Source of the DNA: Amblyomma americanum
Taxonomy: Eukaryota; Arthropoda; Arachnida; Ixodida; Ixodidae
Direction: 5' to 3'
NCBI RefSeq assembly: GCF_052857255.1
Contig: NW_027526484.1
Span: forward strand, 1,399,501 to 1,463,500
Length of the DNA: 64,000 bases
Positions 53,688-60,266 of the stretch are shown in pieces. Position 1 is the first letter of the stretch. Every line of letters starts with the position of its first letter. The notes below the pieces were generated by a model that saw nothing but the letters and a program-made list of their open reading frames with translations, was not told the DNA's origin and did no database searches. Both the position numbers and the translations under genes were made by a program.

Positions 53688-54384
53688 AGTAAGGTTTCTG
53701 GCGACAGCCGGTGGTCTGATTCAGCTGCGTATTCGGCCAGGACACCTGCAGCCGGGGTCCCTGCACGGCGATAGGCATCTGGGTTCCCACGCTCGGTCAT
53801 TGCGAGGTTTATTGGATTCAAGACGGAGGATTCCACTGCAGAAGACGTGTCCGGCTGGAGGGTGAGAACTGTCGCCCTTTCAACTGTGCCTGCTCGCCGG
53901 CGCCTCGCCCATTCAGACTTCCCAGAAGACGGGTCCGGCTTGAGCGTGAGAACTGCCGTTCGGAAGCGAAGACACCACTCTCTCTGATGGGGGGGGGGGC
54001 GATTGTCCAGCGGCACCCTCTCTCTCCGGCGAGGCATGTGACGGGGCCGTGTCTCTATGTGAAGTGGTGTGTGTATACGACAGCGCAAGTTAGGCCACGC
54101 CCAACCTGGCGAAGGCATTCTCAGACCTGGGGAATTCGAGGGACCGGACCCTTTTAAAACCGGACGACGAGTGCCATGAGGAAGGAATCCTCGATCATCC
54201 TCAGATCTTCTCAGGTCCTCCGACCTTCCCCCATCACCCTCCAATGGGTTCCAATATCTTGTAAATAATGTAAAATAAACCCCCTGTACAGTTTCCTTCA
54301 TAACCAAGTCCGACAACGTCATTCGGAGAAGGGACCTGCGGCGCTGAAAGGGTCAGCTCACTCAAGGACCCCTCGTCCCCAACA
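53688..54384 (+). repeat. 5' LTR of G3
   Basis: Starts AGTAAGG (the partner starts TGTAAGG, so the terminal T has mutated) and ends CCCCAACA. AATAAA lies near 54274. GTTGGCAGCAGCTGGGATGG follows directly as a primer-site candidate. Apart from indels it is about 97% like the 3' LTR. Confidence 0.88.
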
Positions 54385-54586
54385 ACTGGTTGGCAGCAGC
54401 TGGGATGGACCGTGCGACATCGTGATTTCTCAACCGGTAAGCGTTTCGGCATTTTGCTGTAGGATTCGCCAGGCTTCAGATTTTGAGAGAATAATCTAGA
54501 ATCACTGGGAAGTGTATGTCAATTGAGAAAGGGTAATCTCACGACATTTTTGAAGATAGCATTGCCAAAGCGGAGAAGGCATTGTC
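54385..54586 (+). other. G3 leader with primer-binding site
   Basis: Non-coding leader between 5' LTR and Gag. TTGGCAGCAGCTGGG at about 54390 fits a tRNA primer site. Confidence 0.55.
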
Positions 54587-56413
54587 ATGGACCTTATGAA
54601 ATTGTCAAAGTCGGACTTGCTGTTGTTATGCGAGGAACTGTCAATAGAAGTACAGGGAAAAATTACAAAACTTGAAATATGCAAGACAATTGAAAAGCAC
54701 GTAGATTACGATCAGCTGGTAGATACGTGGAATTTGGGACAGGAAGAAAAAAGAAAAAGGGAAGCGGAAAGAGAAAAAGAGAAAGAACGGCAAAAGTGGG
54801 AAGCTGAAAAAGAAGAAAGAAATCTAAAGCGATTGCAGCTTGAAAGCGAAAATCGAAAAAAAGGCGACAGTACGAGAGCCGGGTCTCCTGAAAGAGCAAG
54901 CGATGTACAATCATATAGAATGAACAGATTCATGCAGCCCTATGAAAGTGGAAGGGACATAGGATTGTACCTGGGAAACTTTGAGAGAACTTGCGAAAGG
55001 GAGAACTTTGCTTGCAGTACGTGGCCGCAACGGCTTCTGACACTCTTGCCATGTGAAGTAGCTGAAGTCATAGCGAGACTTAGCACACAAGACGCAGCTG
55101 ACTACGAAAAAGTCAAAGCCAGCCTGCTAAAAAGGTACCGGCTGTCAGCCGAAGCTTTCCGACAGCGCTTCAGGAACGCAATGAAAAACGATAGCGAGGG
55201 CTATTCGGATTTCGCGTATGGCCTAAAGACGAATCTGCTAGAGTGGCTAAAAGGAGCCGAGGTTTATGAAAGCCGAGACAAAATCATTGAGTGTTTTTGC
55301 CTTGAGCAATTTTACCGAAGCATTCCCCAAGTGGTGAAACTGTGGGTTCAAGACAGGGAAAAAGTCGACACAGTTGAAAGGGCCGCTGAGCTAGCAGAGG
55401 AGTACGTTTCGCGTAGAAGGTTGAGCACTGAAGAGGGTGCGTCACACGCTCGAAACGCGATGCGAGATAAAGGGCCTAGCAGAAAGGCGCGAAGTGCTAG
55501 AAGTTCGGAGCAATCAGAGGCAACGAAGGTAGCGCCAGAAAAGCGTGAAGAACAGGCGAAGAGACAGGGAGCAGACAAAGCCGCGAAAAAAGAGTTTGAG
55601 GCTAGTAGGCCATTTCGTTGCTACAACTGCAATGGTGTCGGGCACTTTGCAGCCAAGTGTACAAAGCAACGTTTGATGTTCTCGTGCGTCGAGGATAACG
55701 ACGAGAATCTAGAGCTCCTTAAGCCATACCAGCACGAGCTGCACGTTAACGGGAAACCGTGCAGGGTGTTTCGTGATAGCGCTGCGACGATGGACGTTGT
55801 CCACCCGTCTTACGTGTCAGTGGACGATTTTACGGGAGAAGTCTCGTGGATAAAACAGGCAGTAGAAGAACACAGTGTATGCCTTCCCATAGCTAGAGTG
55901 ATAATTTGTGGACCGTTTGGAGAGCTAATCACTGAGGCCGCAGTTTCGAAGGCCGTGCCACTTCAATATCCTTACCTCTTCTCGAATCGATCAGACCAAT
56001 TGCTACGCGAGAGAGGCCAGAAACTCGGAAGCGGGGGGATACAAGCTTTGACAAGATCGAAAACTCGTCAGCTTGCATCTCAACTAAGTCAGATTCCAGA
56101 ACCTCAGGTAGCCAGAGTTGCACCAGCCAGCATATCGTTGCAATCAAATGAGGAGGGAAGTGAACCAACGAGGAATGAAAGCCAGACAGCTGACCGAGCA
56201 AATGAGCGACGAGGGACTTCAACCACTAAGTCGGTAGAGGAATCAGAAAACGCTGAAGGATCCGTTTTATCTCCAACATCGCGTAGTTTTGATCGCCTTC
56301 TGCAGGTGAACAAGGAGTCCCTAACAAAAGAACAGAAGCAGGATCCCACTTTGGAAAGGCTGCACCTTACAGTTAAAGAGGTCATCGCGAGACGCAACAT
56401 AACGATGCATTAG
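54587..56413 (+). CDS. G3 Gag-protease, 608 codons, open
   Basis: The only long intact frame of the element. Residues about 60-95 form a Lys/Glu-rich coiled coil (EREKEKERQKWEAEKEE). About 110-290 is capsid (YLGNFERTCERENF, LLKRYRLSAEAFRQRF). Near 345 is one CCHC knuckle CYNCNGVGHFAAKC. Near 390 is the protease site FRDSAATMDVVHP, where the usual DTG/DSG reads DSA. Gag packages RNA in cytoplasmic particles and the protease would cut it. TAG at 56411-56413 closes the frame but the same frame continues into integrase, so read-through or a mutation must be considered. ATG at 54587 has the coding region's conserved start MDLMKLSKSDLL. Confidence 0.9.
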   Translation: MDLMKLSKSDLLLLCEELSIEVQGKITKLEICKTIEKHVDYDQLVDTWNLGQEEKRKREAEREKEKERQKWEAEKEERNLKRLQLESENRKKGDSTRAGSPERASDVQSYRMNRFMQPYESGRDIGLYLGNFERTCERENFACSTWPQRLLTLLPCEVAEVIARLSTQDAADYEKVKASLLKRYRLSAEAFRQRFRNAMKNDSEGYSDFAYGLKTNLLEWLKGAEVYESRDKIIECFCLEQFYRSIPQVVKLWVQDREKVDTVERAAELAEEYVSRRRLSTEEGASHARNAMRDKGPSRKARSARSSEQSEATKVAPEKREEQAKRQGADKAAKKEFEASRPFRCYNCNGVGHFAAKCTKQRLMFSCVEDNDENLELLKPYQHELHVNGKPCRVFRDSAATMDVVHPSYVSVDDFTGEVSWIKQAVEEHSVCLPIARVIICGPFGELITEAAVSKAVPLQYPYLFSNRSDQLLRERGQKLGSGGIQALTRSKTRQLASQLSQIPEPQVARVAPASISLQSNEEGSEPTRNESQTADRANERRGTSTTKSVEESENAEGSVLSPTSRSFDRLLQVNKESLTKEQKQDPTLERLHLTVKEVIARRNITMH

Positions 56414-58700: not shown

Positions 58701-59046
58701 TGATAGAGGGCTGGGTGCTGTCTTAAGCCAAGTTGGCTACGACCATGAAGAACACCCAGTTCTCTACATCAGCCGCAAACTGACCAGTAGAGAAGAAGCG
58801 TACAGCGCTTCCGAAAAAGAGTGCGCGTGTTTAGTTTGGGCAGCGCAGAAGTTGTCGTGTTACCTGTACGGAGCAAACTTTGTATTTGAGACTGACCATT
58901 GTCCTTTAACGTGGCTGCGACAGATGTCCCCCAAAAATGGACGCTTGCTCAGATGGAGTCTGGCTCTCCAACAGTACAATTTCTCGGTGCGTTATAAGAA
59001 GGGGAAACTGCACGGAAATGCTGATGGCTTGAGCAGACTGATGTAA
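58701..59046 (+). pseudogene. G3 RNase H, last domain of the element
   Basis: After the frameshift near 58660 the frame reads QCDSSDRGLGAVLSQ, then REEAYSASEKECACLVWA, TDHCPLTWLRQM and NADGLSRLM, ending at 59046. These are the usual Ty3/gypsy RNase H blocks. In most gypsy elements integrase would follow; here nothing coding follows. Confidence 0.9.
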
Positions 59047-59436
59047 GCGGGAGAACTAAGAGGAATCTCCTCCTGTGTGAGTGTTTTTTTTTATTTTGTT
59101 CCGAGTAATCCGGCTGTGGCAGTTTCAAAAGGAGATGTTTCGCGCTCAGTCGGCACAACATTAACCCAAATTTGAACACAATTTTTTTAAAAGTGTATTG
59201 TTGTCAATGGAAGAAGCCTGGTGATTCTTTGGCGAAGTCCGAGCGCTTGCGGGTGGGGCAGTGCTTTGCTGTTTGGAACGTCCCACCTGCGCTTTCCTTT
59301 GTTGGTGGTGCTTTGGGTTCTGCCTTGGGGGCGATGATATTGCAATCCAGGGGACCAACACGGACGCCATCTCATCTCTTCCTGCCCAGCGGTCGTCAAC
59401 GCTGGACATTCGAGATTTTTCGGGCCGCGGAGGAGC
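59047..59436 (+). other. G3 3' non-coding region
   Basis: 390 bp between RNase H stop and 3' LTR with no coding motif. GCGGAGGAGC next to the LTR may be the polypurine tract. Confidence 0.5.
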
Positions 59437-60266
59437 TGTAAGGTTTCTGGCGACAGCCGGTGGTCTGATTCAGCTGCGTATTCGGCCAGGACACCTGCAG
59501 CCGGGGTCCCTGCACGGCGATAGGCATCTGGGTTCCCACGCTCGGTCATCGCGAGGTTTATTGGATTCAAGACGGAGGATTCCACTGCCGTTTGAAAACA
59601 ACATTCTTCCCGGAAGACGTGTCCGGCTGGAGCGTGAGAACTGTCGCCCCTTCAACTGTGCCTGCTCGCCGGCGCCTCGCCCATTCGGACTTCCCGGAAG
59701 ACGGGTCCGGCTTGAGCGTGAGAACTGTCGTTCGGAAGCGAAGACACCGCTCTCTCTGGTGGGGGGGGGGGCGATTGTCCAGCGGCACCCTCTCTCTCCG
59801 GCGAGGCATGTGACGGGGCCGTGTCCCTATTTGAAGTGGTGTGTGTGTGTGTGTGTGTGTGTGTGTGTGTGTGTGTGTGTGTGTGTGTGTGTGTGTGTGT
59901 GTGTGTGTGTGTGTGTGTGTGTGTGTGTGTGTGTGTGTGTGTGTGTGTGTGTGTGTGTACGACCGCGCAAGTTAGGCCACGCCCAACCTGACGAAGACAT
60001 TCTCGGACCTGGGGAATCCTAGGGACCGGACCCTTTTAAAACCGGACGACGAGTGCCATGAGGAAGGAATCCTCGATCATCCTCAGATCTTCTCAGATCC
60101 TCCGACCTTCCCCCATCACCCTCCAATGGATTCCAAAATCTTGTAAATAATGTAAAATAAACCCGCTATACAGTTTCCTTCATAACCAAGTCCGACAACG
60201 TCATTCGGAGGAGGGACCTGCGGCGCTGAAAGAGTCAGCTCTCTCAAGGACCCCTCGTCCCCAACA
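59437..60266 (+). repeat. 3' LTR of G3
   Basis: Begins TGTAAGG, ends CCCCAACA. 133 bp longer than the 5' LTR, mainly from a (GT)60 tract plus a short extra block near 59590 (TTTGAAAACAACATTCTTCC). Confidence 0.88.
59839..59958. repeat. (GT)60 microsatellite inside 3' LTR
   Basis: 120 bp of uninterrupted GT. The same place in the 5' LTR (54062-54074) has only a few GT units, so the expansion came after insertion. It makes false Cys-Val frames. Confidence 0.95.

What the first reader, a model, noticed from the sequence alone, without database searches (positions are those of the whole stretch)
53688..60266. Gypsy element with copia-like domain order (PR-INT-RT-RH)
Integrase with a GPY/F-like tail precedes RT. 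One continuous frame (57454-57894) carries both the integrase tail and the RT start, and the element ends after RNase H with its LTR and target duplication, so this is not a chimera of two insertions. Such order is known for Gmr1-like Ty3/gypsy elements, which I recall mainly from deuterostomes; a tick lineage would be notable.
Basis: partly seen in the sequence, partly recalled or inferred. Interest (0 to 1): 0.8.

Follow-up and report, generated by a model that had tools for sequence, protein, structure and literature searches.

The report
Tick gypsy element, integrase before RT
This is a decayed copy of a common tick jumping gene whose enzymes come in an unusual order, a type already known from fish, frogs, worms and crustaceans, so it adds ticks and spiders to a known group and is not a new kind of element.

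Summary
Window 53688-60266 is an LTR retrotransposon with LTRs, a 4-bp target duplication and the order gag(SCAN, CCHC)-PR-INT-RT-RH. It is not a chimera: 12 of 12 sibling insertions at other places have the same order, all 10 with both LTRs delimited are flanked by a 4-bp duplication, and one sibling reads INT-RT-RH in a single 877-codon frame. INT and RT are both Ty3/gypsy-like, not copia-like. In RT and INT trees, elements with INT before RT lie on one side of a branch (99/98 and 100/100) against conventional elements. All 120 listed homologues of the tick query have INT before RT; named hosts are hard and soft ticks, spiders, frogs, turtles, urchins, a crinoid and a scallop. A second search added sea cucumbers, amphioxus, a salamander and a sponge. 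The gag matches the SCAN profile, which a review traces to Gmr1-like gag. So it is a Gmr1-like element, but the supposed deuterostome bias is out of date: such elements were published from crustaceans (2013) and an annelid (2021). The window copy is broken and lies in a tandem segmental duplication. One unexpected detail is that many tick members have D-S-A instead of D-S/T-G at the protease active site.

The parts
53684..53687 (+). 5' copy of the 4-bp target site duplication (GCAC)
   Evidence: sequence
53688..54384 (+). 5' LTR, 697 bp; first base reads A where the 3' LTR has T (AG..CA against TG..CA)
54387..54406 (+). likely primer binding site, starting TGG two bases after the LTR; the same in 15 of the 17 sibling sites printed, with one single-base variant and one more different (L018)
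   Evidence: tRNA identity not established
54560..56413 (+). open frame: gag with SCAN-type capsid domain (aa 198-286), CCHC knuckle (aa 353-369), then PR; ends at a TAG, in the same frame as the following integrase piece
55670..56026 (+). protease domain, retropepsin fold, motif D-S-A-A in place of D-S/T-G-A and LFSN in place of (I/L)LGN
56414..57109 (+). integrase H2C2 zinc domain and rve core; ends at a TGA
57110..57457 (+). integrase C-terminal part up to a frame change near 57455
57454..57894 (+). frame carrying the end of the integrase tail and the N-terminal part of RT
57758..57958 (+). RT N-terminal part after a frame change in an A run (57824-57833); ends at a TAA
57959..58684 (+). 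reverse transcriptase core (RVT_1)
58657..59046 (+). RNase H, last coding domain found in the element
59429..59436 (+). short purine run (GGAGGAG, then C) just before the 3' LTR, candidate polypurine tract
   Evidence: sequence; inferred
59437..60266 (+). 3' LTR, 830 bp, with a (TG)n expansion
60267..60270 (+). 3' copy of the target site duplication (GCAC)

Best explanation
It is a dead copy of a Gmr1-like Ty3/gypsy LTR retrotransposon family of ticks. Some siblings (L010, L012, L013) have one gag-pol open frame of 1,495-1,496 codons in the order gag(SCAN-type capsid, zinc knuckle)-protease-integrase-reverse transcriptase-RNase H. Inferred from established LTR-retrotransposon biology: the polyprotein assembles particles, the protease cuts it, a host tRNA primes reverse transcription just after the 5' LTR, and the integrase inserts the DNA with a 4-bp staggered cut. 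Shown here: domains, order, LTRs, 4-bp duplications and recent insertions of siblings. The inverted order belongs to the whole group and is not an event in this copy. Because the integrase precedes RT, its C-terminal tail is joined to the RT N-terminus and must be separated by cleavage or work as a fusion (inferred).
For: Domain hits. Open frame lengths. Same order in 12 of 12 siblings at other places. 4-bp duplications in 10 of 10 of those with both LTRs delimited (nine different ones; L017 and L018 share GCGT), LTR divergence K2P 0.007-0.026, against 0.040 for the window copy. INT before RT in 120 of 120 listed homologues of a tick query; of 120 listed homologues of a conventional tick element, 99 showed both domains, all 99 as RT-RH-INT, and 21 showed no INT. 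INT before RT in 105 of 106 further homologues of an urchin member, the other lacking an RT hit. RT tree split 99/98 (40 against 18 rows), INT tree split 100/100 (40 against 16 rows). RT nearest to Ty3 among solved structures, no Ty1 among the 12 hits. INT 62-78 bits to Ty3 and foamy-type integrases, 25 to 7z0h_W, which is listed only as Integrase and is the Ty1 one by recall. SCAN profile E 6.5e-15, with SCAN stated to derive from Gmr1-like gag (PMC3424704, passage).
Against: No sequence labelled Gmr1 (cod) and none of the published crustacean or annelid Gmr1-like elements was in the trees. The conventional rows are mostly one clade plus Ty3 and L022 (RT tree) or that clade alone (INT tree), so the split is not tested against Mag, CsRn1 and other named clades. 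The trees are unrooted, and L023 (a second INT-before-RT element) has a very long RT branch. The homologue lists are the top 120 by score and were found with INT-RT queries, so they under-represent other orders. The named spider relatives carry no SCAN call among the listed Pfam domains.
Confidence: 0.93

Rival explanations
1. The tick elements form a separate lineage in which INT moved ahead of RT independently of Gmr1.
For: Tick and spider rows form one set in both trees; the named spider rows lack SCAN calls; L023, a second element with INT before RT, has a very long RT branch.
Against: Elements with INT before RT from ticks, spiders, vertebrates, echinoderms, amphioxus, a scallop and a sponge lie on one side of a single branch in both RT and INT trees, and the SCAN-type domain is found in tick, frog and urchin members.
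Confidence: 0.05
2. The window copy is a chimera of two nested or recombined insertions.
For: The copy has broken frames, and L001 shows that nested insertion does happen in this region.
Against: Same order in 12 siblings at other places, one unbroken INT-RT-RH frame in L010, 4-bp duplications of their own.
Confidence: 0.01
3. It belongs to the tick clade named Squirrel or Toxo in the Ixodes scapularis genome paper, described there as likely specific to chelicerates, and Gmr1-like is the broader group. This is a question of naming and does not exclude the best explanation.
For: That paper reports Ty3/gypsy elements with CCHC gag, GPY/F integrase, TG..CA LTRs and 4-bp duplications in Ixodes (PMC4748124, passages); an Ixodes protein is 81% identical to the INT-RT-RH query.
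Against: The passages read do not mention integrase before RT and speak of two ORFs, while some siblings here have one frame; the paper's supplement could not be read.
Confidence: 0.3

Closest known systems
Gmr1 clade (cod Gmr1; the deuterostome group of Goodwin and Poulter 2002, seen only in reference lists; described in PMC8220671, PMC6238403, PMC3587641, passages)
   Same: INT upstream of RT inside a Ty3/gypsy pol; Gmr1-like gag is named as the source of SCAN (PMC3424704, passage)
   Different: Host is a tick; protease motif D-S-A and LFSN; cod Gmr1 itself not compared
Crustacean Gmr1-like elements GyRex4, Gychoro2, GyMaja1, GyLiva4 (PMC3587641, passages)
   Same: Arthropod hosts, related to the Gmr1 clade; GyRex4 and GyRex5 resemble a bream element with the Gmr1-like structure
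   Different: Crustaceans; GyRex4 and GyRex5 are non-overlapping partial sequences; here whole copies in a tick
uncharacterized protein LOC144174320, Haemaphysalis longicornis (P0002)
   Same: 89% identity over the whole 877-aa query, same order, SCAN present
   Different: Database protein, no family name given
Conventional Ty3/gypsy elements in this window (18.5-22.1 kb and 25.7-29.3 kb, minus strand) and L021, L022
   Same: Same superfamily, same genome
   Different: RT-RH-INT order; RT 36-41% identical to this element

Membership tests
Gmr1-like Ty3/gypsy | Integrase domain upstream of RT in pol | tested here: met
Gmr1-like Ty3/gypsy | RT groups with other INT-before-RT elements, apart from conventional Ty3/gypsy | tested here: met
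   99/98 (40 against 18 rows); few conventional clades sampled
Gmr1-like Ty3/gypsy | INT groups likewise | tested here: met
   100/100 (40 against 16 rows); few conventional clades sampled
Gmr1-like Ty3/gypsy | Groups with cod Gmr1 itself | not tested
   no protein named as cod among the listed homologues; many rows there have no host name
Gmr1-like Ty3/gypsy | SCAN-related capsid domain in gag | tested here: met
   E 6.5e-15; PEG3 2.9e-6, ZNF24 2.1e-5, ZNF42 0.052; that these chains are SCAN domains is recalled; origin of SCAN from PMC3424704 passage
Ty1/copia | RT and INT of copia type | tested here: not met
   best matches are Ty3 (RT) and foamy-virus and Ty3 (INT); no Ty1 among RT hits, 25 bits for INT
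LTR retrotransposon | LTR pair, target duplication, primer site | tested here: met
   which tRNA primes is not established
Retropepsin (clan AA) | Fold | tested here: met
   (predicted model)
Retropepsin (clan AA) | D-T/S-G and ILG motifs (PMC2642776, passages) | tested here: not met
   D-S-A-A and LFSN in the window copy

The most novel reading that the evidence does not exclude
A branch of tick Gmr1-like elements uses a working retropepsin in which both hallmark glycines are replaced: D-S/T-G becomes D-S-A (repeatedly gained or lost) and the ILG-type motif becomes LFSN. Such elements have kept spreading, so the glycine of this catalytic loop can be dispensed with in nature.
Probability: 0.4. 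Interest if true: 0.42.

Novelty: new member of a known kind. Interest (0 to 1): 0.25.

Why it matters
It shows that the INT-before-RT branch of Ty3/gypsy is at home in ticks and spiders, with well over a hundred relatives in this one genome, and that the same architecture runs from a sponge to chordates. That makes one old origin of the order the simplest reading and removes the idea of a deuterostome speciality. The altered protease motif, if functional, would be a natural test of what a retropepsin needs at its catalytic loop.

Tried and rejected
Chimera of two insertions: rejected by 12 siblings at other places. Copia integrase captured by a gypsy element: rejected, INT scores far higher to Ty3 and foamy-type integrases than to the Ty1 one. 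First trees contained two rows read in a wrong frame by my mistake (window conventional RT, L022 INT) and are discarded; one search corrected them, and repeats the test without any row put together from two pieces and with ten added rows per tree. dN/dS between the window family and the second element in L001 could not be given for three of four pieces because synonymous sites are saturated (pS 0.79-0.92 against pN 0.20-0.31); the fourth gave 0.23. Primer tRNA: not settled; aragorn listed two tRNA genes (Pro, Ser) in the fetched DNA and window, which I did not compare with the site. Profile search of the protease against solved structures gave only weak matches to retropepsins, best E 0.07. 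Paper searches, seen as listings unless passages are cited: Gmr1 alone (53 papers, 40 listed), SCAN with Gmr1-like (9 papers), tick with Gmr1 (50 papers, 10 listed, no relevant title), gypsy terms with Ixodes and Rhipicephalus (4 papers), Gmr1 with retrotransposon (21 papers, none with a tick in the title; most full texts not checked for ticks), Squirrel with Toxo (only the Ixodes paper), SCAN with arthropod (2 papers), DSA with DTG (none). (Gmr1-like with chelicerate terms, at least two of five terms) is uninformative: 3,773 papers, and none of the 10 listed holds Gmr1-like.
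Full report
What is there. The stretch 53688-60266 is a complete but broken LTR retrotransposon on the plus strand. The LTRs are 53688-54384 and 59437-60266 and share 670 of 697 aligned positions; the rest of the length difference is mainly a TG microsatellite. GCAC stands on both sides as a 4-bp target duplication. Between them lie, in order, gag with a SCAN-type domain and a CCHC knuckle, a protease, the integrase zinc and core domains, RT and RNase H. The frame is interrupted by stops after 56410, 57106 and 57955 and by frame changes near 57455, in the A run at 57824-57833, and between RT and RNase H near 58670.

Not a rearrangement. The genome that holds the window (2.56 Gb, 429 contigs) gave 150 scored relatives of the RT, the ceiling of the search. 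Of 20 fetched copies, 19 show the same order from gag to RNase H. Of these 19, 7 are segmental copies of the window's own insertion and 12 lie at other places. The twentieth (L001) is a copy of the window's insertion interrupted by an inverted second element. Ten of the 12 had both LTRs delimited. All ten are flanked by a 4-bp duplication, nine different ones (L017 and L018 share GCGT on different contigs), with LTR distances (K2P) of 0.007-0.026, against 0.040 for the window copy. In L010 the integrase, RT and RNase H lie in one frame of 877 codons without a stop, and Pfam finds H2C2, rve, RVT_1 and RNase H in that order, with two tail profiles (p58_C, SH3_Tf2-1) just under their cut-offs between rve and RVT_1.

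Protease. Pfam does not recognise it. A model of 55670-56026 built on 13 sequences has mean pLDDT 87, and its best solved matches are retroviral proteases (best E 1.3e-6, XMRV protease). The catalytic motif reads D-S-A-A, not D-S/T-G. Among proteins whose motif could be read in a pairwise alignment, 28 of 74 have A at the glycine position (27 DSAA, 1 DCAA); 3 more were aligned but could not be read. Of the 20 fetched loci, 19 read D-S-A and one D-S-T; eight of the 20 are copies of the window's insertion, and L001 was read in its inverted second element. On a tree of 68 rows (29 with A, the window row included) the state changes five times, at least four of them forced by well-supported branches. 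The second motif reads FSN or LSN in the named tick rows where it aligned and LGN in the four named spider rows shown (P0053, P0060, P0063, P0071). A published template for this protease clan names D-T/S-G and ILG as its two canonical motifs (PMC2642776, passages). That the D-S-A form works is inferred from its persistence in open frames; it was not tested.

Relatives. The top 120 homologues of the L010 query all have INT before RT. Named hosts are hard ticks (Haemaphysalis, Ixodes, Rhipicephalus, Amblyomma), a soft tick (Ornithodoros), spiders, frogs, turtles, urchins, a crinoid and a scallop; many rows have no host name, and two are labelled archaeal metagenome bins, probably mislabelled animal DNA. 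As a control, a conventional element beside one sibling (L021) gave 120 listed homologues, of which 99 showed both domains and all 99 read RT-RH-INT; 21 showed no INT. A search with an urchin member added 106 new proteins, 105 with INT before RT and one without an RT hit, from sea cucumbers, amphioxus, a salamander, a turtle and a sponge among others. In the genome's own best RNase H loci, 28 of 30 read RT-RH-INT and 2 of 30 RT-RH; 14 of the 30 share one RT sequence, and these loci reach only about 1.5 kb to each side of RNase H, so an upstream integrase would not be seen.

Trees. With no row put together from pieces, the RT tree has 40 rows with INT before RT and 18 conventional rows, the INT tree 40 and 16. 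In both the two orders lie on opposite sides of one branch (99/98 and 100/100, and 100 percent of 200 bootstrap trees). The earlier corrected trees agree (99/96 and 100/99). Limits: unrooted, few conventional clades, no cod Gmr1, and a long RT branch for the second element (L023).

Gag. The SCAN profile matches with E 6.5e-15. Vertebrate chains PEG3 (2.9e-6), ZNF24 (2.1e-5) and, weakly, ZNF42 (0.052) match the same stretch by sequence; that these chains are SCAN domains is recalled. A review states that SCAN derives from the gag of a Gmr1-like element (PMC3424704, passage). This is independent support from a part of the element not used in the trees.

Known or new. Gmr1 is described as the Ty3/gypsy clade with integrase upstream of RT (PMC8220671, PMC6238403, passages). 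Crustacean members were called the first in protostomes in 2013 (PMC3587641), an annelid family was added in 2021 (PMC8220671), and the clade was listed as present in several phyla (PMC8556966). No title in the listings names ticks as hosts of such elements; the library is open-licence only and most of those full texts were not checked, so this does not show that tick members are unpublished. The Ixodes genome paper names two likely chelicerate Ty3/gypsy clades, Squirrel and Toxo, with 4-bp duplications, and one of them may be this group (PMC4748124, passages). The verdict is a new member of a known kind.

Mechanism. Particle formation, tRNA priming and integration are inferred from established knowledge of LTR retrotransposons. 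Shown here are the domains, LTRs, 4-bp duplications and the recent spread of siblings. The joined integrase tail and RT start imply a cleavage site or a fused enzyme, which was not tested.

Genome setting. Eight other places on contigs C12 and C19 carry this same insertion: all eight share the 3' flank and seven the 5' flank, and in the seven with both LTRs the duplication is the same GCAC. They are spaced 365, 425, 420, 429 and 431 kb apart on C12 and 430 and 327 kb on C19 (positions). Two test stretches 42 kb apart in the copy at about C12:1.87 Mb are 99.93 percent identical to the window. The window therefore lies in a large tandem duplication, real or of the assembly.

Noticed in passing
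window 1-64000 and G000 contigs C12, C19: The window lies in a tandem array of very large units (spacing about 330-430 kb; 99.93% identical in the two 3-kb stretches tested in one copy); nine copies of this insertion mark it. Real amplicon or assembly effect not decided.
   Followed up: partly
window 55670-56026 (protease) and relatives: Catalytic motif D-S-A instead of D-S/T-G in many tick members, with several switches between A and G on the tree, and FSN in place of LGN.
   Followed up: partly
window 1-2900 minus strand, continued in L023: A second, more divergent and decayed element with integrase before RT (INT 40%, RT 36% identical to this element).
   Followed up: partly
window 17809-32201: Head-to-tail duplication of 7,201 bp at 99.8% identity, each unit holding RT-RH-INT domains of a conventional Ty3/gypsy element on the minus strand.
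   Followed up: partly
L001: Copy of the window insertion interrupted by an inverted Gmr1-like element of another family (INT 72% identical).
   Followed up: partly
54387-54406 and L018: Primer-site variants: nearly all copies share one sequence, L018 has a different one that resembles the end of a leucine tRNA (recalled, not tested).
   Followed up: no
P0080, P0082: Arachnid-like retrotransposon proteins filed under archaeal metagenome bins, probably contamination.
   Followed up: no
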